Both the position numbers and the translations under genes were made by a program. The notes below the pieces were generated by a model. It ran no database searches. It saw only the letters and a list, made by a program, of their open reading frames with translations, and was not told the origin of the DNA. A stretch of DNA of 64,000 nt from the NCBI RefSeq assembly GCF_003987185.1, contig NZ_PIPS01000001.1, positions 496,001-560,000 on the forward strand, in the 5' to 3' direction. Shown here piece by piece: positions 34,661-45,928 of this stretch. Origin of the DNA: Idiomarina aquatica. GTDB lineage: Bacteria; Pseudomonadota; Gammaproteobacteria; Enterobacterales; Alteromonadaceae. The number at the start of each line of letters is the position of its first letter. The stretch's first letter is position 1.

Positions 34661-35191
34661 TCATTGTCCGGTCAGGTATTTCCAGCGTTCAGGGTACTTG
34701 CCCTGTTTGATGTAAGATCGCAGCGTTGAATAAGGCCAATCCCAGGCGGTTGCGGTATAGCCATGTTTGACCGGGTTGTAGAGGCAGTATTTTACGCAAC
34801 GTTCGTAATCCTGTTGGTCGGTAATGCGGTGGTCGTAAAACCGCAGATGCCAGAGCCTTCCCCGTTTCGCCCGCCGACGCCATTTGTAGCGGTTATTGAG
34901 GGTGTAGTTTTTATAAGAGAATTGCGAAAAGTCGCGCGTCATATGGCTTTTAAAACAACCAATAAAACGCCCCAGTTCAACGTGATGAGTGCGGATCACA
35001 AAATGCATATGATCCGGCATCACCACCCACGCATGATTTTCAAACGGATATTTCCCCTTAGCCAACGCCACCGCCCGCCGCAAAGACGCCAACATCTCCG
35101 GCTCAATCAACACCTTCTGCCACTCAAACGTATTCATGGTGATAAAATACAGACCGGCCGGATAATATTTTCGCAGTTTCCAAATCGTCAT
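34661..35191 (-). CDS. REP-associated tyrosine transposase (RAYT)
   Basis: A 176-residue Y1 HUH transposase-like protein. The HUH motif is His61-Met-His63 (MPDHMHFVI); the tyrosine of YCLYNPVKHG (Tyr135) is the likely nucleophile; LWHLRFYDHRI is a family hallmark. RAYTs (TnpA-REP) bind and cut REP palindromes preceded by GTAG-type tetranucleotides. The gene abuts cluster 2 of such palindromes. The ATG at 35191 is preferred over 35230, where 13 extra residues do not match the family. The gene appears intact. Confidence 0.9.
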   Translation of the reverse strand: MTIWKLRKYYPAGLYFITMNTFEWQKVLIEPEMLASLRRAVALAKGKYPFENHAWVVMPDHMHFVIRTHHVELGRFIGCFKSHMTRDFSQFSYKNYTLNNRYKWRRRAKRGRLWHLRFYDHRITDQQDYERCVKYCLYNPVKHGYTATAWDWPYSTLRSYIKQGKYPERWKYLTGQ

Positions 35192-35284
35192 CCCGCCATT
35201 AAAGACCAACCCCACACCCCCCGCCGCCAAAAATAACCCAAAATCCCCGACGACATCGGCACATTGTTGGGGGGTTTGGGCGCG

Positions 35285-36843
35285 GCATTTTTATGGATCG
35301 AGGGCGCATGCGGCCGGCGATCGATGCGGCCCCCGGAGGCGGGAATGCCCTCCGCCCCGATCGGCACGCGAGGCTCCGCCTCGCTAAGCCGATGGCTACC
35401 TACGATTTGCAAAAGATTTGGGGATATTTTCGGTGCCATGTTTTGAATTCGTGCGAAGGACGTATTCAATGCGAAATCCCGGCAATGCCACAAAACCCAT
35501 TCATATCGTGGGTACCCATCGGCTTAGCGGCGCAGCCGCGTGCCGATCGGGGCCAAAAATATTCCCGCCTCCGCAAGCCGCATCGATCGGGGCCAAAAAA
35601 ATTCCCGCCTCCAAACGCCCCATGGATCGCCCGCCGCATGCGACCGCGGGAATTTTTCAATATCGGGAATGAATTCGGGCGTGGATTATTTCGATATCGG
35701 GGGCGGATTTGGGCGCGGATTTTATCGATATCGGGGGCAGATTCGGGCGCGGGAATTGATTGATATCGGGGATGAATTCGGGCGCGGGAATTGATTGATA
35801 TCGAGGGCGCATGCGGCCGGCGATCGATGCGGCCCCCGCAGGCGGGAATGCCCTCCGCCCCGATCGGCACGCGAGGCTCCGCCTCGCTAAGCCGATGGCT
35901 ACCTACGATCTGGGGGCGATTTTCGGGGGCGATGGGACCGCGGATTATTTCAATATCGGGGGCGAATGCGGGCGCGGATTTTATCGATATCGGGGGCGCA
36001 TGCGGCCGGCGATCGGATGCGGCCCCCGGAGGCGGGAATGCCCTCCGCCCCGATCGGCACGCGAGGCTCCGCCTCGCTAAGCCGATGGCTACCCACGATT
36101 TGAGGGCGATTTTCGGCAGGCGATAGGACCGCGGATTTTTTCAATATCGGGGGCGGATTTGGGCGCGGATTTTATCGATATCGGGGGCGGATTTGCGCGC
36201 GGGATTTTTTCAATATCGGGGATGAAATCGGCCGCGGGAATTGATTAATATCGGGGGCGAATGCGGCCGGCGATCGATGCGGCCCCCGCAGACGGGAATG
36301 CCCTCCGCCCCGATCGGCACGCGAGGCTCCGCCTCGCTAAGCCGATGGCTACCTACGATTTGCAAAAGATTTGGGGATATTTTCGGTGCCATGTTTTGAA
36401 TTCGTGCAAGGGCGTTTTCAATGCGGGGGGCCGGCAATGCCACAAAACCCATTCATATCGTGGGTAGCCATCGGCTTAGCGGCGCAGCCGCGTGCCGATC
36501 GGGGCCGAAAGAATTCCCGCCTCCGCAAGCCGCATCGATCGGGGCCGAAAACATTCCCGCCTCCAAAGGCCGCATCATCCGCCCGCCGAATGCGACCGCG
36601 ATCCATAAAAATCCCACCGAATTCATGCGAAGGGCGTATTCAATGCGAAATCCCGGCAATGCCACAAAACCCATTCATATCGTGGGTACCCATCGGCTTA
36701 GCGGCGCAGCCGCGTGCCGATCGGGGCCGAAAGAATTCCCGCCTCCAAAAGCCGCATCATCCGCCCGCCGCATGCGACCGCGGGATTTTTTCAATATCGG
36801 GGATGAATTCGGCCGCGGGAATTGATTGATATCGAGGGCGAAT
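35285..36843. repeat. REP/BIME-like palindromic array, cluster 2 (interrupted by prophage)
   Basis: 1.56 kb of the same mosaic as cluster 1. REP hairpins: minus strand 35359-35399, 35862-35902, 36052-36092, 36312-36352; plus strand 35512-35547, 36464-36499, 36686-36721. The leading tetranucleotide is GTAG in five copies and GTAC in two. Between 35690 and 35810 a 33-35-bp unit (GATATCGGGGGCGGATT and variants) is tandemly repeated. Blocks containing CCACAAAACCCATTCATATCG recur three times here and twice in cluster 1. The array breaks off within a unit at 36843, where prophage DNA begins. Confidence 0.88.
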
Positions 36844-36910
36844 TGTAACCCACCACCTATTATGAAACAGAAACCACTGTGAAAATGAAACCGGGAGAAT
36901 GTGAAATCAT
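36844..36910 (+). other. Prophage left end with putative transposase-binding sites
   Basis: The terminal TG is at 36844-36845. ATGAAAC occurs at 36862-36868 and 36885-36891, and a related GTGAAAT at 36901-36907, resembling the repeated MuA sites of Mu ends. The five bases before the junction are CGAAT, the expected target duplication. Confidence 0.75.
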
Positions 36911-38168: not shown

Positions 38169-38522
38169 ATGTTTAACCAAACAAGCCGAAAAAAAACCAG
38201 GGTGGCACCTGGTCCTGCTTCTGACATGCACCCTGCCGACATCAAGTGTGCATTGGAAAAAGCAGGCTGGTCATTACGCCAGTTAGCGTTAAAAAACGAG
38301 CTGTCCGCTGCGTCGGTTGCCGTTGCCCTAAAAAAGCGCTGGCCTCGTGTGGAGAGCATTATAGCAGAAGCCCTTGGGATAAAGCCTTGGGAAATCTGGC
38401 CCTCTCGTTACGACAGCAATCACAAGCCAATCAAAAAACATCGAGGCTGGCCAACGTCGAAATCGTTCAAACCGAAGCATAGTACAGAAGCTTCAGATAA
38501 GCGACAAGGAGACTCCCAATGA
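38169..38522 (+). CDS. ner: Ner-like DNA-binding protein
   Basis: A 117-residue basic protein with a Ner/Nlp-type HTH (HPADIKCALEKAGWSLRQL, then LGIKPWEIWPSRY). Ner in Mu is a second negative regulator of early transcription. The first ATG lacks a ribosome-binding site; the ATG at 38226 would give the usual short Ner, so the start is uncertain. The stop overlaps the transposase start (ATGA). Confidence 0.88.
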   Translation: MFNQTSRKKTRVAPGPASDMHPADIKCALEKAGWSLRQLALKNELSAASVAVALKKRWPRVESIIAEALGIKPWEIWPSRYDSNHKPIKKHRGWPTSKSFKPKHSTEASDKRQGDSQ

Positions 38523-40756
38523 GCTCGTTTAAAACCATCTCTGTGACGGTGGATGAGCTTGTTGAAATTACCGGCTTGTCGAAACCGTCTTTGTCCAAAA
38601 AGAAAAAAGCCGAGAACTGGCTTACGGACACAAAAACTGTTCGGCGTGGTGATGTTGGTCGTGCCGCCCAGCTATACCTTATTGAGTCATTCCCCGAGGA
38701 CTTAAAAGCCAAGGTTTATGATCACTTTGAGCGTAAGGCTGTCGAATCGAAACTGGAGTCGGTGCAAGAGGCTCAGGAATATACTGAAACACAAATCTTG
38801 AGAGCGCGGGCGCGTTACGCATACGTCCAGGCGTACCGAAAAGCGAACCTCGAAGACCAACGCAAAAGAGGAAACCAGAAAGATTTAAGTCTACGCCGAT
38901 TCTGTAATGCTTTTGAGAGCGGTCAAATTGAAGTCGAACCTGAGTATTTGCCTGAAGCTCTTGAGGATAAAGGTATCAAGCTCGGTTTAAGTCCTGCGAC
39001 GCTGTGTCGTTGGTTAAAAGCTGTTGAAAAAGACGGAATCGACGGGCTTTTAAATAAGCCACGCGCATTACAGAAAACCAAGATAGAAAAGCAACCTGAA
39101 TTGGTAGAAGCCTTGCAAGCTATGTGGGGTGATCTGTCCCACCTTTTTGAAAAAAGAAACTTTACCAAAGTTAGAGAGCTTGTAGTGGCTTTTAAGGAAG
39201 GCCGAAACCTTGATTTTTCAGTTCCCTCAGTCAGTTCATTCCGTCGCTGGTATTACGGTCTTTCGGAAGAAGATTTACAGAAAATGACTTTCGTCACTAA
39301 CCCGACAAAGTTCACCAGTAAATATGAAATTCAGATAGGTGTTCACTATGCCGGCAACGCCCCAAACAGCATCTGGGAGTTTGATGGGACACCAGCAGAC
39401 GTAATGTGTGTTGATGGCCGCTACAAAATAACAGCGGGCATCGACACCTACACTCGCCGCGTTCGATTGTTGCTGGTACCGAGCCAAACAACCGATGCCA
39501 ACCTGGCGCTGCTTCGCCGAATGATTATGGACTTCGGACTGCCGTCTGACGACAGCGTCATGGTCACCGACAACGGCAGAGACTACATATCTCACAAGTT
39601 TCAGGAAGTGCTGGAGCGCCTTGGTGTTAAACGAGTTCAAACCCGCCCCTATTCAGGCAAAGAAAAGCCGTTCATCGAGCGATTCTTTGGCTCTATGGCT
39701 CGCGGATTTATAGCGACGATGCCCGGCTTTATCGGACACAATGTGGCGGATCGTAAACGCATTGAGGAAAAGCGTACTTTCGCCCATAAAAGAGCTGTTC
39801 GTCGAGGCAAGGACGTTCTCGCTGCTGACATTGCTGAGTTTGGCGCTACGATGACAGCCCAAGAAATTCAACAGATACTTGATGAATATTTAACCGAATA
39901 CTACGAGAAAAAACCTCACGCCGGGCTGGGCGACAAGACGCCCGAGCAAGTCTATATCGAGTCACGCTACCAACCTCGTGTCGTCAATTACGAGACCTTG
40001 GCTATTGCCACTAATCCAATTGGTCAACCAACGGTAAGAAACGGTTTTGTTCAACTGAACAAGGTGAGATACGTAGCGCCCGAGCTTCACGACCTCGTTG
40101 GCAAACGAATCGAAGTCTACCAGCACCCGGACGATCCTGAAGTGTTTGTCGGGAAGGACATTTCTAACGGCATCGCCAACGGCCAGGTGTTCCCTTTAAC
40201 TGACATTACATCAACCACCCAAGAGCAGCGCGCCGTGTTGCGAAGCAGCAAAAAACGCAAAGAGAAAGAGCTCATGGCCTTTCGTAGGAACATCATCAAA
40301 AAAGGCAAAGAGCTGGGCCTTAAAGATGCGCCAAACCTGCTTATCGCCGCAGCAAAAAGAAGAAATGCAGCTGTAGCACCATTCAAACAACGTCCAATTG
40401 AAATCGATAAGCCTGAATTTGAGGGCTTTGAGAAAGCAATGAAGTACGGCAGCTCTGACGCTATCGCAGACACAGTCGAGGCTAAAAGCATCAGCGAAAT
40501 GATTGCCGAGCAGCAGCGCGAGAAAGAGGAATTGAGGACTCAGGAAGCGCCTATCCGCGAGCGTCGCCAGAAAATCATCCGTACCGAGGCGGATCTGATC
40601 CAAATGCTCATTTACAAAGAGCTGGAGGAAGGTTTAACCGAAGAAGAGCAAATGAAAGTTGAGGATTACATGATGAGTGACGTTGGCGAAATGCAGGTTA
40701 AAGCATGGCGTCAAGTCGCAACCTACGAGCACGCTAAACGAGCCAAAAACGGTTAG
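38519..40756 (+). CDS. A: Mu-type transposase subunit A
   Basis: A 745-residue DDE transposase. An N-terminal Mu DNA-binding domain (VDELVEITGLSKPSLSKKK) is followed by HTH domains and the rve catalytic core with Asp289 (WEFDGTPAD), Asp351 (VTDNGRDY) and Glu387 (FIERFFGS). A Mu-type C-terminal region and an acidic, helical tail follow, which in Mu contacts MuB and ClpX. It should bind the TGAAAC-type end sites and carry out replicative transposition with MuB. Confidence 0.96.
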   Translation: MSSFKTISVTVDELVEITGLSKPSLSKKKKAENWLTDTKTVRRGDVGRAAQLYLIESFPEDLKAKVYDHFERKAVESKLESVQEAQEYTETQILRARARYAYVQAYRKANLEDQRKRGNQKDLSLRRFCNAFESGQIEVEPEYLPEALEDKGIKLGLSPATLCRWLKAVEKDGIDGLLNKPRALQKTKIEKQPELVEALQAMWGDLSHLFEKRNFTKVRELVVAFKEGRNLDFSVPSVSSFRRWYYGLSEEDLQKMTFVTNPTKFTSKYEIQIGVHYAGNAPNSIWEFDGTPADVMCVDGRYKITAGIDTYTRRVRLLLVPSQTTDANLALLRRMIMDFGLPSDDSVMVTDNGRDYISHKFQEVLERLGVKRVQTRPYSGKEKPFIERFFGSMARGFIATMPGFIGHNVADRKRIEEKRTFAHKRAVRRGKDVLAADIAEFGATMTAQEIQQILDEYLTEYYEKKPHAGLGDKTPEQVYIESRYQPRVVNYETLAIATNPIGQPTVRNGFVQLNKVRYVAPELHDLVGKRIEVYQHPDDPEVFVGKDISNGIANGQVFPLTDITSTTQEQRAVLRSSKKRKEKELMAFRRNIIKKGKELGLKDAPNLLIAAAKRRNAAVAPFKQRPIEIDKPEFEGFEKAMKYGSSDAIADTVEAKSISEMIAEQQREKEELRTQEAPIRERRQKIIRTEADLIQMLIYKELEEGLTEEEQMKVEDYMMSDVGEMQVKAWRQVATYEHAKRAKNG

Positions 40757-40795
40757 CGCGCTCGTAAATTACCACCCCAAAAGAGGACTTAAATT

Positions 40796-41506
40796 ATGAA
40801 ACATAAAGTGGTTACAGTCAAAAACGTTAACAAATCAATGAATCTGTTACGTAACTTACAGAGTCGGTCATCAATTATCCCTGGTCTGGGATTGATTCAC
40901 GGGCCCTCTGGCTTCGGTAAAACCACTACCGTTGTCTGGATGTTCAACCAAACCCGCAGCGTGTACGTGCGCTGCTACGCCACCGACACACCCAGCTCAT
41001 TCTTAGGGCGTGTGTTGCAGGAAATGGGTGAGGTGCCACGTCCACCGCTTTCCAACATGGTAGGGCAAGTTATTGAGCGCATGGTTATGGACCACTGCTC
41101 GCTGTTTATTGATGAGGCCGACCACATCGTCAATAACACCCGAATCATGGAAACCATTCGCGACATTTACGACAGCGCCGAAGAGCCAATTGTACTGATT
41201 GGCATGGAGCAAATTGCCCGTCGCATCAGCCACCGCAAGCAAATGTTTAACCGCATATCTGAGTGGGTCGAGTTTCAACCGGCTGACCTGGACGACATGG
41301 AAATGCTGGTTAAAGAGCTGTTCGAAATCAACCTGGACATCAAAGAGGACATGCTCAGCTACATCTGTAACGAGAGCGGCGGCGAAATGCGTCAAATACT
41401 CGTTGCCCTGGAGAAGATTGAGCGTTTTGCCATGGCAAACAAGCTCGACACCGTGGACCGCCGCAGCTGGGGTAAAGAGCCGTTGTTCCTGTTGCAACGC
41501 CGTTAA
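40796..41506 (+). CDS. B: Mu-type transposition ATPase B
   Basis: A 236-residue AAA+ ATPase. Walker A is GPSGFGKTTT (residues 36-45) and Walker B is LFIDEADH (Asp106, Glu107). It lacks the N-terminal HTH extension of Mu phage MuB (312 residues). MuB-type proteins bind target DNA and deliver it to the transpososome. AGAGGA precedes the ATG. Confidence 0.92.
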   Translation: MKHKVVTVKNVNKSMNLLRNLQSRSSIIPGLGLIHGPSGFGKTTTVVWMFNQTRSVYVRCYATDTPSSFLGRVLQEMGEVPRPPLSNMVGQVIERMVMDHCSLFIDEADHIVNNTRIMETIRDIYDSAEEPIVLIGMEQIARRISHRKQMFNRISEWVEFQPADLDDMEMLVKELFEINLDIKEDMLSYICNESGGEMRQILVALEKIERFAMANKLDTVDRRSWGKEPLFLLQRR

Positions 41507-42079: not shown

Positions 42080-42585
42080 ACGTGTTAAAGCGCGAAGTCA
42101 GCAAACAAGGCCTGGGCGCTGTGGCTGAAATGATGGAGACCAGCCGTGCGGCAGTCTCCCAGCTGGTGAACGGCAAATACCCCGGCAACCTTGAACGGAT
42201 GAAAGCGCGCGTTGAAGGCGTGTTCTTTAACCGTACCGTGGAATGCCCCGTCGCCGGTGAAATACCGGCACAGCAATGCTTCAGCAATCAGCGCAAGAAG
42301 CCTGGTAGCAATCCGATGAATCTACGTTTCTTCAAAGCCTGTCGCAGCGGCTGCCCGCACAGCCAGCAAAAGCAACAGTTCGGCGGTGAGGTTATTCCCA
42401 CGCTGTACGTCAGCACTGACGAACCACAGGAATACAACCCGCATCGCACGTTGCATCTGTTAAAGACCCAGGCAACCAGCCAGGAAGGCAGCAGCAAAGA
42501 CGCGCAACTAACTTACATTCAGCTGCTTGAGAGCGAAGTACACAACCTCGCAGCACGCCTAAAAACAGCAAACAAAGGTGATTGA
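42067..42585 (+). CDS. HTH and cysteine-motif early phage protein
   Basis: A 172-residue protein. The N-terminal 60 residues form a small HTH (GAVAEMMETSRAAVSQLVNG). A cysteine-containing segment follows (CPVAGEIPAQQC, then FFKACRSGCPH), which could bind metal, and a C-terminal helix. Similar proteins are common after transposition genes in Mu-like phages; the role is unknown. Confidence 0.6.
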   Translation: MQWIDVLKREVSKQGLGAVAEMMETSRAAVSQLVNGKYPGNLERMKARVEGVFFNRTVECPVAGEIPAQQCFSNQRKKPGSNPMNLRFFKACRSGCPHSQQKQQFGGEVIPTLYVSTDEPQEYNPHRTLHLLKTQATSQEGSSKDAQLTYIQLLESEVHNLAARLKTANKGD

Positions 42586-42586
42586 T

Positions 42587-42853
42587 ATGACCAAACAACA
42601 ACAAAACTGGGCCGTCGCAATTCAGGCAGTGGAAAAGCTTCAGGCGCTCAACATTACCGTTTGCAATGTGTGTATCTCGGCCAGCAAGCCGGTGATCACC
42701 ATTGAACCACCCAAGGGCGTGCGCTTTGCGCAGCGCCCTGCCGAAGTCTCAATCCGCCGTGGCGGCGGTGAGCTTGTAAGAATCCGTACCGGAATGTTCG
42801 AAGGCTGCGCTGTGCGCTGGCTGAACGAACGCATCATTGACCAAGTGCACTAG
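42587..42853 (+). CDS. Hypothetical early phage protein
   Basis: An 88-residue protein starting MTKQQQNW. The ATG at 42587 is preferred over a GTG at 42578 because AAGGTG is then correctly spaced. The central region is beta-rich (TVCNVCISASKPVITIEPPK). No family is recognised. It overlaps the gene downstream by at least one codon in another frame. Confidence 0.55.
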   Translation: MTKQQQNWAVAIQAVEKLQALNITVCNVCISASKPVITIEPPKGVRFAQRPAEVSIRRGGGELVRIRTGMFEGCAVRWLNERIIDQVH

Positions 42854-42863
42854 GGGAATACCA

Positions 42864-43466
42864 ATGCAACAAGAGCAGTATAAAAAAGACGCCAAAGGCC
42901 GTCTGATTCCGATTGACCAGATCCACGAGTTGGACATTTTAAAAGACGACTTTGTGAACGAAATGGTCACCAAAGCCAAAGAGAAAAACGGCGATTTAAA
43001 AGCCTTTAAAAAGGCGTTATTCGACGACTTTGGAACCTTCATGGAAATGATAGCCGAGCGCTACCAAACCACAGTGGGCGGCAAAAAAGGCAACGTGACC
43101 ATCTATTCATTTGATGGTCGTTACAAGCTGTCAGTTGCTGTCCAGGACCGCATCACCCTGGGCCCTGAATTACAGGTGGCGGAAAAACTCATTAAAGAGT
43201 GCGTCCGCGACTGGTCACAGGATGCCCGCTCCGAGCTTAAAACCTTGGTTGAACGTGTATTCGAGACCGACAAAGAAGGCAACATCAACACCCGCGAAGT
43301 GCTGGCACTGCGTCGTTATGAAATTGAGGACGAGCGCTGGCAAAAAGCCATGGACGCTATTTCTGACGCCATCAACGTGGTCGGCAGCAAAGAGTACATG
43401 CGCTTTTACGAGCGTGACAGCGCGGGTGATTACAAGCCTATTTCCGTCGATTTTACCAAGGTATAG
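42864..43466 (+). CDS. DUF3164 family phage protein
   Basis: A protein of about 200 residues matching the DUF3164 family of Mu-like phages (YKKDAKGRLIPIDQIHELD, FEDxR-type GGKKGNVTIYSFDGRYKL, ALRRYEIEDERWQKAM, VVGSKEYMRFYERD). The function is unknown. The ATG at 42864 follows the preceding stop by 10 bp and has GGGGAA ahead; an in-frame ATG at 42837 lies inside the previous gene. Its TAG stop codon lies in the first strand of the hammerhead ribozyme downstream. Confidence 0.85.
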   Translation: MQQEQYKKDAKGRLIPIDQIHELDILKDDFVNEMVTKAKEKNGDLKAFKKALFDDFGTFMEMIAERYQTTVGGKKGNVTIYSFDGRYKLSVAVQDRITLGPELQVAEKLIKECVRDWSQDARSELKTLVERVFETDKEGNINTREVLALRRYEIEDERWQKAMDAISDAINVVGSKEYMRFYERDSAGDYKPISVDFTKV

Positions 43467-43529
43467 CGAAACGCCCGTTCGCGGGCGTCTGTCAGGCGTG
43501 GCGGCCTGGCACTGATGAGCAGCTAATAC
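43461..43529 (+). ncRNA. Type II hammerhead ribozyme 1
   Basis: All core bases are present: GAAA (43468-43471), GUC with cleavage after C43489, and CUGAUGA (43512-43518). Stem III is ACGCCCG/CGGGCGT with a UUCG loop (43471-43488). Stem I is 8 bp, TGTCAGGC/GCCTGGCA with loop GUGGCG (43490-43511). Stem II is GC/GC, an internal loop with AGCTA on the 3' side, then GTAT/ATAC. Stem II open, stems I and III closed: type II. The 5' strand includes the stop codon of the DUF3164 gene. Confidence 0.93.
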
Positions 43530-43554
43530 GAAACACAAACAACGAGGCAGAACA

Positions 43555-44169
43555 ATGAAACTCGATTTTTTAAAGACCTTGCAGGAGGTGCAACCCTGCG
43601 GCCTACGGGCAGTTATCGAGCCACTGGATGAAAGCTATCCGGTGATGGCGTATTCCGACTGGAAAGAGCTGGCAGCGCAACTGGTTGATGCTTGCTTTGT
43701 TAAGCGCCTGGGTAACGGCCAGTACACGGTTACGCCAGCAGGCAAAGAAGCTATTGCCCAGGGCGAAGAGTTCCTTGAGCAGGCGCTTGGCAGCGAGCAA
43801 GAGCCCGAAGACCCGGAGTCCAATGACATCCTGGCGGGAACAGTGCAAGCGGGAACAGTGCAAGCGGAGTCAGCATCATCGAAGCCTGCACCGGAGCACC
43901 CGTGGCGTAAGCCATTATTGGCCAGCAACCCCATCACAGAGGAAGTTCAGCGTAAAGAGCGAGAGCAAAAGCAGGCTGATTCGGCCAACGATTCCAGCAT
44001 GAAATTTTACGCCTGGACGACCAAAGCTGATTTGGAAAAGGTTGGCACGGATGAACTGCTAAGCCGTCACCAGGTGCTTAAAGAGCACCTGAACGAAATC
44101 AAGGAAGTGGTTAACCGCCGTGTGACCACCTCGTTTTATGGTCCGGTAAAGCAGGAGAGTCTTTCATGA
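43555..44169 (+). CDS. Hypothetical protein between two hammerhead ribozymes
   Basis: A 204-residue protein. Residues 30-70 look like a winged helix (WKELAAQLVDACFVKRLGNG, YTVTPAGKEAI). A low-complexity acidic linker contains a perfect 15-bp tandem duplication at 43834-43863, encoding AGTVQ twice. A helical C-terminus follows (ADLEKVGTDELLSRHQVLKE). No function is known. It overlaps the double-HTH gene by 4 bp and would lie on the RNA released by ribozyme cleavage. Confidence 0.65.
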   Translation: MKLDFLKTLQEVQPCGLRAVIEPLDESYPVMAYSDWKELAAQLVDACFVKRLGNGQYTVTPAGKEAIAQGEEFLEQALGSEQEPEDPESNDILAGTVQAGTVQAESASSKPAPEHPWRKPLLASNPITEEVQRKEREQKQADSANDSSMKFYAWTTKADLEKVGTDELLSRHQVLKEHLNEIKEVVNRRVTTSFYGPVKQESLS

Positions 44170-44900
44170 GAATTGCTGAAAAGGAGTTCCAGTCTAATTT
44201 TGGTGAGCGCCTGAAGTTGTTTAGAAAAAGCATGAAGCTGACGCAGGCTGAAATGGCAGAAAAAGTCGGTATGTCGCTTAAAGGGTACCAGGGCAATGAG
44301 CGAGGAGTTGCGTCCCCTTCCGCGATGCTAGTCGATTCGTGCGTAGACCTTGGCGTAAACAGTAATTGGCTTCTAACTGGCAAGGGCGACATGTTGCTAA
44401 AAGATGCTGGGGTAGAAAAACATCAGGGACCACGGAAAGCAGAGGCAGTCATGTCTGACCGTCAAAAATTCGTACCTAAAGATGATAACGGCATTGGCGC
44501 TCGCCTCTTCACAGCGCGTAATCATCTCAATTACACGCAAGGCGAAATCGCTGAACGGCTGGGAATGTCAACCAAAGGCTATCAACACAATGAAAAGTCA
44601 TATTCGATCCCCAACGCGCTAACTTTGGTGTTTTTCGTACAAAGAGGGTTTTCAGCACGGTGGTTACTCACTGGCCAAGGCGAAATGCTTGCTAGTAGTG
44701 AGTCGAATGAGCTTTTAGCAGAGCCAAGCCCACTGGAAGCCCAGGTCAACGATAACAAAGAGAAAATAAAAACCCTTTGGGAGTGCGCCCGGGATATGAA
44801 CATTGCCATTGACTGCTTGCGGAAGATGCACGAGCGCACTCGCCAGCCACTCATTAAGCGCGTGTGGGATTGGGTGTTCGGCAACAACATAAAAGCCTAA
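44166..44900 (+). CDS. Double helix-turn-helix repressor-like protein
   Basis: A 244-residue protein made of two consecutive CI-type HTH domains: residues 11-78 (KLTQAEMAEKVGMSLKGYQ ... WLLTGKGDML) and about 110-178 (NYTQGEIAERLGMSTKGYQ ... WLLTGQGEML). Both resemble the HTH of the phage repressor (MSQTELAKTADMSLRGYQ). A helical tail replaces the S24 domain. It may compete at the immunity operators or bind paired half-sites (inference). Its TAA stop codon lies within hammerhead ribozyme 2. Confidence 0.75.
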   Translation: MRIAEKEFQSNFGERLKLFRKSMKLTQAEMAEKVGMSLKGYQGNERGVASPSAMLVDSCVDLGVNSNWLLTGKGDMLLKDAGVEKHQGPRKAEAVMSDRQKFVPKDDNGIGARLFTARNHLNYTQGEIAERLGMSTKGYQHNEKSYSIPNALTLVFFVQRGFSARWLLTGQGEMLASSESNELLAEPSPLEAQVNDNKEKIKTLWECARDMNIAIDCLRKMHERTRQPLIKRVWDWVFGNNIKA

Positions 44901-44963
44901 GCGAAACGCCCTACGGGGCGTCTGGCTGGCGTGGTTGCCAGTCACTGATGAGCAGCCGAGGTG
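44895..44963 (+). ncRNA. Type II hammerhead ribozyme 2
   Basis: Core: GAAA (44903-44906), GUC with cleavage after C44922, CUGAUGA (44945-44951). Stem III is ACGCCC/GGGCGT with a UACG loop (44906-44921). Stem I is 8 bp, TGGCTGGC/GCCAGTCA with loop GUGGUU (44923-44944). Stem II is GC/GC, an internal loop with AGCCG on the 3' side, then outer pairs GCCT/AGGT. Compared with ribozyme 1, stem I shows compensatory changes at two pairs. The outer stem II includes part of the gemA ribosome-binding site GAGGTG. Confidence 0.93.
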
Positions 44964-44967
44964 AATA

Positions 44968-45528
44968 ATGAATAGCAAGGCAAAACTGATACAGCTGATC
45001 CACGTGGCCAAGCGTGAATTGCGTCTCGATGACGAGACCTATCGCGCTGCATTGCAGGGTGTTTGCCAAAAAACATCCTGTAAAGACATGACTCTGGCCG
45101 AGCTGCAAAAGGTGCTCAATCACTTTGAAGACAAGGGGTTTAAAAAGCGCGCTAAAAAAAGCAAAAAGCGTCAATCGCCGTCATCCAGCAAGCCGGTTAA
45201 GTGGCCTGAAATTAGGGTCATTCGCGCTATCTGGATACAAGCGGCCAACGACAAACTGTTAAAAGACGGCTCGGAAGAAGCCCTGGATAAATGGGTGTTT
45301 CGCATGACCGGCGTTCGTCACGTTGGCTGGCTGAGCTACGACCGCGCCTTTAAAGTGCTTGAGTCATTAAAAAAATGGCATAAGCGTTTGATGATCAATT
45401 GGTTAGACACCAAATTCGGGTATAGTTATGCGCTCTTGGACAAGGACGAGCTATTGCCGTACTCACAGGTGACCGAGGTCTTTGAGGCGTGTCGTAAGGC
45501 TCACAAGGAGCGTAAAAATGCAGAATGA
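44968..45528 (+). CDS. gemA: GemA-family regulatory protein (DUF1018)
   Basis: A 186-residue protein of the Mu GemA/gp16 family: LIHVAKRELRLDDETYRAAL near the N-terminus and VRHVGWLSYDRAFKVLESLK later. In Mu, GemA alters host gene expression and DNA relaxation. Its ribosome-binding site GAGGTG overlaps stem II of the upstream ribozyme. It overlaps the Mor/C-family gene by 11 bp. Confidence 0.9.
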   Translation: MNSKAKLIQLIHVAKRELRLDDETYRAALQGVCQKTSCKDMTLAELQKVLNHFEDKGFKKRAKKSKKRQSPSSSKPVKWPEIRVIRAIWIQAANDKLLKDGSEEALDKWVFRMTGVRHVGWLSYDRAFKVLESLKKWHKRLMINWLDTKFGYSYALLDKDELLPYSQVTEVFEACRKAHKERKNAE

Positions 45529-45928
45529 AATGTTCGAAGACGATAAAAACCTTGATGAATTGTTGAGCAAAGCGGAAGATATAGAGCTTGATTCAACAGC
45601 ATGGCCGCACGCATTGGCCGAGCTGGTCAGTATTTTTAAAGACGAAATGACAAGCTCTGCTAAGCTGGATGAGAGCAAGGCGCTTAAGTTAGCAAAACGT
45701 CTGGTCGCACGTCAGGCGCACCACATGGGCGGTCGTCAGTACTACTTGCCGCGTGATGAGCGACTGAAAAAAGCCTTGCGCGATGTAGACATTTGGCAAC
45801 GCTACAATGGCCGCAACATTGACGTTCTGCAACGTGAGTACGGCTTGACCAGTCAGCAGATATACGCGATTTTGCGCGAGCAACGGCAGTTAGAGCGCGA
45901 CCGCCGTCAACATAAACTATTTGGGTAG
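45518..45928 (+). CDS. Mor/C-family transcription activator
   Basis: A 136-residue activator of the Mor family. An acidic N-terminal dimerisation region is followed by a C-terminal HTH (NIDVLQREYGLTSQQIYAIL) with a basic end. AAGGAG precedes the ATG at 45518. Mu has two such genes (mor for the middle promoter, C for late promoters); only one is seen here, so it may do both jobs. It is the natural candidate to bind the boxes at 46376 and 54740. Confidence 0.9.
   Translation: MQNEMFEDDKNLDELLSKAEDIELDSTAWPHALAELVSIFKDEMTSSAKLDESKALKLAKRLVARQAHHMGGRQYYLPRDERLKKALRDVDIWQRYNGRNIDVLQREYGLTSQQIYAILREQRQLERDRRQHKLFG

What the first reader, a model, noticed from the sequence alone, without database searches (positions are those of the whole stretch)
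43461..43529. Hammerhead ribozyme on the stop codon of the DUF3164 gene
Seen: every conserved core base (CUGAUGA, GAAA, GUC) in the type II order, stem III with UUCG loop, 8-bp stem I, 2+4-bp stem II. Known: type II hammerheads occur in bacterial and phage genomes. Inferred: it self-cleaves after C43489, detaching the transposition mRNA from the downstream genes. The first strand of stem II includes the stop codon, so a terminating ribosome would block folding and couple cleavage to translation.
Basis: partly seen in the sequence, partly recalled or inferred. Interest (0 to 1): 0.9.

Follow-up and report, generated by a model that had tools for sequence, protein, structure and literature searches.

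The report
Stop-codon hammerhead ribozyme in Mu-like prophage
By its sequence the spot is a genuine self-cutting RNA (a type II hammerhead ribozyme) sitting on a gene's stop codon in a Mu-like prophage, with a second copy further along, so that the two bracket an inserted gene pair; the ribozyme kind is known, but its habit of sitting next to stop codons gives a testable idea of what phage hammerheads do.

Summary
The ribozyme is real by sequence. Core, 2-bp stem II, cleavage site C43489 and UUCG-capped stem III hold.

The stop-codon placement is common: an upstream stop ends 1-3 nt before GAAA in 72 of 134 viral and 21 of 39 genome examples and 12 of 16 Rfam-found same-family ones, but only 5 of 15 located phylum-wide. 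Seven of seven loci (two lineages) with a hammerhead on the DUF3164 stop have another just before gemA, bracketing an insert; in 19 of 31 relatives without one there, the next start lies within 2 nt.

Best reading: an end-of-message module that cuts the early operon and insulates inserted genes. Cleavage and ribosome coupling are untested. Clustered type II hammerheads in prophages were published in 2011; my ten searches of open papers listed nothing on the stop-codon rule.

The parts
43464..43528 (+). Hammerhead ribozyme 1 (type II), Rfam RF02276; predicted self-cleavage between C43489 and U43490
   Evidence: 72.5 bits, E 3.6e-13; descriptor hit
43464..43466 (+). Stop codon TAG of the DUF3164 gene; its G is the first base of stem II; 1 nt (C43467) between stop and G12
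43466..43467 (+). Stem II 5' strand (GC), pairs with 43519-43520
   Evidence: 2-bp stem II
43471..43488 (+). Stem III hairpin (7 bp, UUCG loop); 43471-43489 folds at -12.1 kcal/mol; would end the upstream mRNA flush with the cut
43490..43511 (+). Stem I hairpin (8 bp); 43490-43520 folds at -14.0 kcal/mol; would start the downstream mRNA from its first base
43499..43502 (+). Loop I UGGC, proposed pseudoknot partner of tail 43522-43525 (GCUA)
   Evidence: covariation across 144 classified type II hammerheads
43512..43518 (+). Core CUGAUGA (C3-A9)
43522..43525 (+). Tail GCUA, proposed pseudoknot partner of loop I
44899..44961 (+). Hammerhead ribozyme 2 (type II); predicted self-cleavage between C44922 and U44923; stop TAA 44898-44900 lies 2 nt before G12 (44903)
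   Evidence: 66 bits, E 1.8e-11
42864..43466 (+). DUF3164 gene (PF11363; phrog_846), ends in ribozyme 1
43555..44169 (+). Inserted gene, 204 aa, no Pfam or PHROG family at E 0.001; starts 88 nt after the DUF3164 stop
44166..44900 (+). Inserted gene, 244 aa, HTH domains in two stretches; its start overlaps the previous stop (ATGA), no ribozyme between them; ends at ribozyme 2
44968..45528 (+). gemA (PF06252), start 16 nt after A9 of ribozyme 2
45494..45928 (+). mor (PF08765), overlapping the end of gemA
38519..41506 (+). Mu-type transposase (rve, Mu-transpos_C) and AAA/TniB ATPase genes: upstream early operon

Best explanation
It is a type II hammerhead ribozyme used as an end-of-message module in the early operon of a Mu-like (B3-like) prophage. 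As the transcript is made, ribozymes 1 and 2 cut it just after the stop codons of the DUF3164 gene and of the HTH gene. This splits it into a transposition message, an inserted two-gene message and a gemA-mor message. Each cut leaves a flush hairpin on both new ends (stem III on the upstream piece, stem I plus pseudoknot on the downstream piece), held together beforehand only by a 2-bp stem II, so the pieces should part at once and resist trimming. The cut also stands where related phages have close, probably coupled, stop-start junctions, so genes can be inserted without tying the output of their neighbours together. Shown by sequence: ribozyme anatomy, position, bracketing of the insert, and close stop-start spacing in relatives without the ribozyme. 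Inferred: cleavage in the cell, stabilised ends, insulation, and that coupling was lost rather than gained.
For: Rfam scores; descriptor against 60 shuffles; pseudoknot covariation. In the window and L024-L029 (7 of 7 with a hammerhead on the DUF3164 stop; two lineages, since L024-L027 have 98-100% and L028-L029 74-75% DUF3164 identity to the window) A9 of another hammerhead lies 16-18 nt before gemA. In L044, L046 and L056, without hammerheads, GemA (PF06252) starts 1, 1 and 8 nt after the DUF3164 stop, so the ribozymes bracket what stands between two genes that are neighbours elsewhere. The next start is within 2 nt of the DUF3164 stop in 19 of 31 loci without a hammerhead there (mechanical ORFs of 40 aa or more). 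In stretches of 6 annotated phages the 19 junctions with an Rfam hammerhead have gaps of 48-299 nt; 32 of the 48 others have gaps of 2 nt or less. Inside the window's insert the two genes overlap (ATGA) with no ribozyme. No promoter-like site and no + strand terminator-like site at 42500-45600. Perreault 2011 (PMC3088659; passages and section 7 read) reports cleavage during in vitro transcription of three tandem bacterial hammerhead sets, cleavage in E. coli of one of them, and pseudoknot formation in the 3' strand alone.
Against: No cleavage or RNA data for this locus. A junction holding a 60-nt element is spaced by construction, so the gap contrast shows that close spacing is absent there, not why; 16 of the 19 junctions come from three related Streptomyces phages. 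Ribozymes are patchy: of 38 DUF3164 loci (window plus L024-L060) 10 carry one by my descriptor, so many do without. Nine loci (L038, L042, L047-L050, L053, L054, L058) have 1.3-3.4 kb between DUF3164 and gemA and no hammerhead (Rfam agrees). In phage R4, 4 of 7 Rfam hammerheads lie inside annotated genes, perhaps through misplaced starts. End stabilisation rests on recalled knowledge of RNase E, RppH and 3' exonucleases. ViennaRNA (no pseudoknots) prefers another fold for ribozyme 2.
Confidence: 0.6

Rival explanations
1. Translation-coupled cleavage: a ribosome ending on the stop covers stem II, GAAA and the start of stem III, so the ribozyme folds and cuts only when ribosomes have left; cleavage reads out translation of the upstream gene.
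For: Stops end 1-3 nt before G12 in 72 of 134 viral examples and 4-9 nt in 29 more, which puts G12 under a terminating ribosome (footprint about 10-11 nt past the stop; recalled). The stop triplet at d=2 ends an ORF of 50 aa or more in 52 of 63 thinned cases.
Against: Any compact operon gives this geometry. Upstream flank A at -4 is common even without an ORF stop at d=1-3 (49 of 68), so part of the match is ribozyme sequence preference. Cleavage after the stop does not threaten the upstream protein. Phylum-wide only 5 of 15 located examples have d=1-3.
Confidence: 0.2
2. Genome economy only: phage genes are packed, the ribozyme is the whole spacer, and its A-rich 5' flank doubles as a stop codon. 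The ribozyme cleaves, but its position carries no regulatory meaning.
For: Downstream starts are also close (first start median 19 nt after A9; 148 of 159 within 120 nt). Flank preference for A.
Against: Explains stop adjacency but not why both edges of the insert carry a ribozyme in 7 of 7 loci of two lineages, nor an array with a ribozyme after successive small genes (L099).
Confidence: 0.25
3. The hammerhead DNA is mainly a recombination joint for exchanging gene cassettes.
For: The window's ribozyme 2 matches ribozyme 2 of L026/L027 on its upstream side and their ribozyme 3 on its downstream side; between those two, relatives hold one gene each: a protein in L024 with only a 14-residue match to the others (in the part where both ORFs read the ribozyme), one in L025, and a pair in L026/L027 (63% to each other, 29-30% to L025).
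Against: A general test failed: homology breaks at hammerhead junctions in 35 of 64 pairs against 554 of 1215 at other junctions, per-junction Mann-Whitney p=0.39; at 80% identity or more 6 of 28 against 198 of 586. Conserved ribozymes can blur a breakpoint.
Confidence: 0.1
4. Decayed or selfish ribozyme without present function.
For: Patchy distribution (16 of 395 family genomes; of 19 genomes of the genus only the window's own).
Against: Core bases intact in both copies; pseudoknot compatible in both; L099 keeps 11 Rfam hammerheads, and the ten read by descriptor have differing stems and follow successive small ORFs.
Confidence: 0.05

Closest known systems
Hammerhead_II (Rfam RF02276); type II hammerheads of Perreault et al. 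2011 (PMC3088659; passages and section 7 read, supplements not seen)
   Same: Core, open short stem II, hairpin-closed stems I and III, loop I-tail pseudoknot, clusters flanking genes in prophages, proposed cutting of long phage transcripts into shorter mRNAs
   Different: Main text has no occurrence of 'stop codon', 'translation' or 'ribosome' (finds); stop adjacency and the contrast with close stop-start junctions are added here
Enrichment of bacterial hammerhead and twister ribozymes near Mu-like phage genes (stated in PMC10085705, one passage read, citing its refs 25 and 26)
   Same: Same genomic neighbourhood (Mu-like phage genes)
   Different: That passage says the biological reason is unknown; here a junction-level rule and a bracketing pattern are given. 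The cited papers were not read; one likely DOI (recalled) is not held
Synthetic ribozyme insulators such as RiboJ (recalled, no call)
   Same: Works like: a hammerhead between elements makes a message independent of its neighbour
   Different: Engineered, placed upstream of one gene, derived from another hammerhead (recalled); not a membership claim
Streptomyces phages R4, Paedore, phiELB20, VieEnRose; Vibrio phages martha 12B12 and 1.028.O; Alteromonadaceae phage B23; Chromohalobacter phage YPCBV-1; Pelagibaca phage vB_PeaS-P1 (stretches of the records seen)
   Same: Carry RF02276 hammerheads near annotated stops
   Different: R4, Paedore and phiELB20 (Arquatrovirinae; not Mu-like, recalled) have 3-5 bp stem II and stops 4-14 nt away in the 12 hammerheads read by descriptor

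Membership tests
Hammerhead_II (RF02276) | Covariance-model score above gathering (37 bits) | tested here: met
   72.5 and 66 bits
Hammerhead_II (RF02276) | Invariant core CUGANGA and GAA, A15.1-U16.1 pair, H17 not G | tested here: met
   Both copies
Hammerhead_II (RF02276) | Permutation with stems I and III closed and stem II open | tested here: met
   Full-length model match; sequence
Hammerhead_II (RF02276) | Loop I-3' tail pseudoknot | tested here: met
   UGGC/GCUA (one G-U) in copy 1, UGGU/GCCG (two U-G) in copy 2, by reading; family covariation 140 of 144, 15 of 159 examples unclassified, relatedness not corrected
Hammerhead_II (RF02276) | Self-cleavage after H17 | not testable with these tools
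   No bench or RNA-seq data
Mu-like (B3-like) prophage early operon as host element | Mu-type transposase, ATPase, DUF3164, gemA, mor in order | tested here: met
   Pfam hits
Natural ribozyme insulator (functional class) | Neighbour genes become independent because of cleavage | not testable with these tools
   Only spacing and bracketing evidence
Intrinsic terminator | Hairpin followed by a T run on the + strand | tested here: not met
   No + strand terminator-like site at 42500-45600; the 6 found are on the - strand

The most novel reading that the evidence does not exclude
Phages of several lineages carry a portable stop-ribozyme-start module: a type II hammerhead joined to a stop codon that replaces translational coupling, cuts the operon after each gene, and leaves hairpins flush on both new ends. 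It makes single-gene messages and lets new genes be plugged in, in arrays of up to eleven (L099; also R4-type phages). Natural insulators, in other words, with cleavage gated by the terminating ribosome.
Probability: 0.25. Interest if true: 0.8.

Novelty: new member of a known kind. Interest (0 to 1): 0.55.

Why it matters
What hammerheads do in bacteria and phages was left open in the 2011 paper, and the 2023 passage that I read still calls the reason for their association with Mu-like genes unknown. A positional rule tied to stop codons, a contrast with close stop-start junctions in related operons, and cultured phages that carry arrays (R4 on Streptomyces coelicolor, Paedore on S. lividans, hosts as given in the records) make the question directly testable.

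Tried and rejected
Outer 4-bp stem II: dropped; kept in L026/L027, absent in L024, L025, L028, L029, and in competition with the pseudoknot. Intrinsic terminator: dropped. Hammerheads as general recombination hot spots: tested and not supported; one slot shows the pattern. Other ribozymes as a control for stop adjacency: Hammerhead_1 in 274 genomes and twister-P1 in 299 gave no hit, and the tool warns that this does not show absence, so the control failed. Other RNA families at the DUF3164 stop of relatives: 29 of the 31 loci L030-L060 scanned with Rfam (L052 and L060 not given); only L037 and L051 had hits, RF02276 and not at that stop. GemA search in genome contigs confirmed no relative among 40 pattern matches. 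Fold z-scores of whole ribozymes are modest (-1.22, -2.27).

Counts differ between scripts because of filters: 190 distinct contexts, 11 without ORF; its printout was cut; 180 with GC before GAAAC and 200 nt upstream; 159 after thinning; includes the window and its relatives; 134, 39 and 16 under one ORF rule, from 150, 40 and 29 validated. Only 40 hammerheads passed the structure check in 119 genome stretches, so most stretches were probably chance matches. The family sample of 16 includes the window; one search excludes it (12 of 16 after 5 of 21 were dropped as redundant). In the phylum sample 5 of 20 could not be located by my pattern and were left out. My descriptor missed the vB_PeaS-P1 hammerhead and others that Rfam finds; I therefore recounted the annotated junctions with the Rfam hits. 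ORFs from scripts are mechanical; the L024, L025 and L026 cassette ORFs start inside the ribozyme, so their lengths are too long.

Full report
What is there. Rfam RF02276 (Hammerhead_II) matches the window at 43464-43528 (+, 72.5 bits, E 3.6e-13) and again at 44899-44961 (+, 66 bits, E 1.8e-11); no other family passes its gathering score in the 64 kb, and the own genome shows only these two. A separate hand-written descriptor finds just these two in the window, against 0.033 per dinucleotide shuffle, and none of 60 shuffles meets the strict stem lengths. From the sequence: ribozyme 1 has stem II GC/GC (43466-43467/43519-43520), GAAA 43468-43471, stem III 43471-43477/43482-43488 with UUCG, C17 43489, 8-bp stem I and CUGAUGA 43512-43518. 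Ribozyme 2 has GAAA 44903-44906, C17 44922 and CUGAUGA 44945-44951. Cleavage is predicted after C43489 and C44922.

A correction to the anatomy. Loop I (UGGC 43499-43502) can instead pair with the tail (GCUA 43522-43525), the pseudoknot described by Perreault et al. 2011. Across 144 classified examples the varying loop and tail base are G-C 124, C-G 10, A-U 4, G-U 1, U-A 1, with 4 mismatches: 140 compatible against a permuted mean of 116.6 and maximum of 125; 15 of 159 examples could not be classified. Relatedness is not corrected. Perreault's section 7 (read) reports, for one metagenome-derived ribozyme, large activity loss when the pseudoknot is broken and also when stem II is lengthened.

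Neighbourhood. Pfam gives a Mu-type transposase at 38519, an AAA/TniB ATPase at 40796, DUF3164 at 42864, HTH domains at 44166, GemA at 44968 and Mor at 45494; the 204-aa gene at 43555 has no family. This is the early region of a Mu-like (B3-like) prophage; phage records with a DUF3164 relative (all 106 below 60% identity) include Pseudomonas phages B3 and LPB1.

The stop-codon rule. With d the number of bases between the stop and G12, ribozyme 1 has d=1 (TAG C GAAA) and ribozyme 2 d=2 (TAA GC GAAA). In hammerheads found in viral contigs by a pattern that does not read the bases before GC, 134 non-redundant cases give d=1-3 in 72, 4-6 in 17, 7-9 in 12, 10-12 in 6, 13-15 in 4, 16-30 in 6, 31-120 in 10, zero or less in 1, and no ORF in 6. 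In bacterial genomes 39 cases give 21, 6, 6, 0, 1, 2, 2, 1 and 0. In hammerheads found by Rfam, 12 of 16 in the host's family and 5 of 15 located phylum-wide have d=1-3; 13 of 16 and 11 of 15 have d up to 9. So the tight form is commonest in the host's family and looser elsewhere. Of 63 stop triplets at d=2 in the thinned set, 52 end an ORF of at least 50 aa, more than the third expected by frame alone. The flank itself favours A at -4 even where no ORF stop lies at d=1-3 (49 of 68), so part of the effect is shared sequence. Depositors' own annotation agrees for the one hammerhead checked in each of six records: the annotated stop ends 2-3 nt before G12 in martha 12B12, Vibrio phage 1.028.O, vB_PeaS-P1, B23, YPCBV-1 and VieEnRose (three further VieEnRose hits not checked). 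In R4, Paedore and phiELB20 the 12 hammerheads read by descriptor have d of 4-14; of the 7, 9 and 8 Rfam hits there, 4 in R4 lie inside annotated genes and none in the other two, which may be misplaced starts in R4 but counts against the rule as annotated.

The bracketing pattern. In the window and L024-L029 a hammerhead sits on the DUF3164 stop and A9 of another lies 16-18 nt before gemA (7 of 7); these are two lineages, not seven independent cases. L024-L027 have a third between them. In L044, L046 and L056, which lack hammerheads, gemA follows the DUF3164 stop after 1, 1 and 8 nt. In 19 of 31 loci without a hammerhead at the DUF3164 stop the next start of an ORF of 40 aa or more lies within 2 nt, a spacing that suggests translational coupling. 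Whether the insert was gained in one lineage or lost in others is not resolved. Nine loci have 1.3-3.4 kb between DUF3164 and gemA and no hammerhead, so an insert does not require one. In stretches of six annotated phages, the 19 junctions with an Rfam hammerhead have gaps of 48-299 nt, while 32 of 48 others have gaps of 2 nt or less; a junction with a 60-nt element is spaced by construction, and 16 of the 19 come from three related Streptomyces phages. In the window the inserted pair itself overlaps (ATGA at 44166-44169) with no ribozyme between.

One cassette slot. The window's ribozyme 2 aligns upstream with ribozyme 2 and downstream with ribozyme 3 of L026 and L027. Between those two ribozymes relatives carry one gene: in L024 a phrog_5671 protein, in L025 one without a family, in L026 and L027 a pair with 63% identity that is 29-30% identical to L025. 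So the slot holds different genes and is empty in the window, with the joint at the ribozyme. A general test over 157 loci found no excess of homology breaks at hammerhead junctions (35 of 64 pairs against 554 of 1215; p=0.39). I therefore do not claim a recombination function.

How it most likely works. Type II geometry puts the cut between two closed hairpins. The upstream RNA would end stop-(G)C-GAA-hairpin-C; the downstream RNA would begin with stem I and the pseudoknot, which Perreault reports forms in the 3' strand alone. Segments holding stems III and I fold at -12.1 and -14.0 kcal/mol in copy 1 and -11.3 and -14.3 in copy 2. Only 2 bp of stem II join the two pieces. From general knowledge (recalled), a hairpin flush with a cyclic-phosphate 3' end and a hairpin at a 5'-OH end should slow exonucleases and 5'-end-dependent RNase E. 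I infer a module that ends one message and starts the next, and keeps inserted genes from being coupled to their neighbours. Ribosome gating of cleavage is possible but unproven: a terminating ribosome would cover stem II and GAAA, yet packing alone gives the same geometry.

What is known. Perreault et al. 2011 described type II hammerheads, clusters around prophage genes and the idea of cutting long phage transcripts; the main text has no 'stop codon', 'translation' or 'ribosome' (supplements not seen). The 2017 review PMC6155905 (passages) ties prokaryotic hammerheads to phages and calls their roles open. PMC10085705 (one passage) states that hammerhead and twister enrichment near Mu-like phage genes was found earlier and is unexplained. 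Neighbours in the viral set agree: upstream HU-like 15, DUF3164 6 and Gam 4 of 77 proteins scanned (of 123 listed); downstream DUF2786/DUF7168 9 and GemA 5 of 73 (of 118 listed). In ten literature searches of open-licence papers, no listed title or abstract opening concerns stop-codon placement of phage hammerheads; some lists were cut, most listed papers were not opened, and most subscription papers are not held.

Verdict. The ribozyme is a new member of a known kind in a known kind of place. The stop adjacency and the bracketing of an insert are the parts worth a specialist's time. The mechanism is at about 0.6, ribosome coupling at about 0.2; the check changed facts and caveats but not these odds.

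Noticed in passing
44899-44961: Second type II hammerhead in the same operon, not in the finding, on the stop of the HTH gene and just before gemA.
   Followed up: yes
L099 2817-6749 (IMGVR_UViG_3300017605_000570): Eleven Rfam type II hammerheads in about 4 kb; 9 of the 10 read by descriptor have the stop of an ORF of 35 aa or more 1-2 nt before the core.
   Followed up: partly
L306, L307, L311, L314 (Streptomyces phages R4, Paedore, phiELB20, VieEnRose): Cultured phages carry hammerhead arrays (7, 9, 8 and 4 Rfam hits in stretches of 5-6 kb), with no ribozyme feature listed in the annotation seen; a tractable test system.
   Followed up: partly
L024-L027 between the second and third hammerhead: A gene slot bounded by very similar hammerheads holds different proteins in different relatives and is empty in the window.
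   Followed up: partly
34661-35230 and about 35190-36900: An ORF that looks like a REP-associated (RAYT-type) transposase (motif recalled, no call) lies beside a stretch in which the same peptide phrases recur on both strands in the ORF list, as in a REP/BIME array.
   Followed up: no
44901-44958: ViennaRNA's minimum-energy fold of ribozyme 2 pairs GGUUGC with GCAGCC, an alternative that would undo stem I; could be an artefact of ignoring the pseudoknot or a real competing fold.
   Followed up: no
42587-42850: 88-aa protein matches phrog_6381, annotated as Kil protein for septation inhibition (E 1.7e-07).
   Followed up: no
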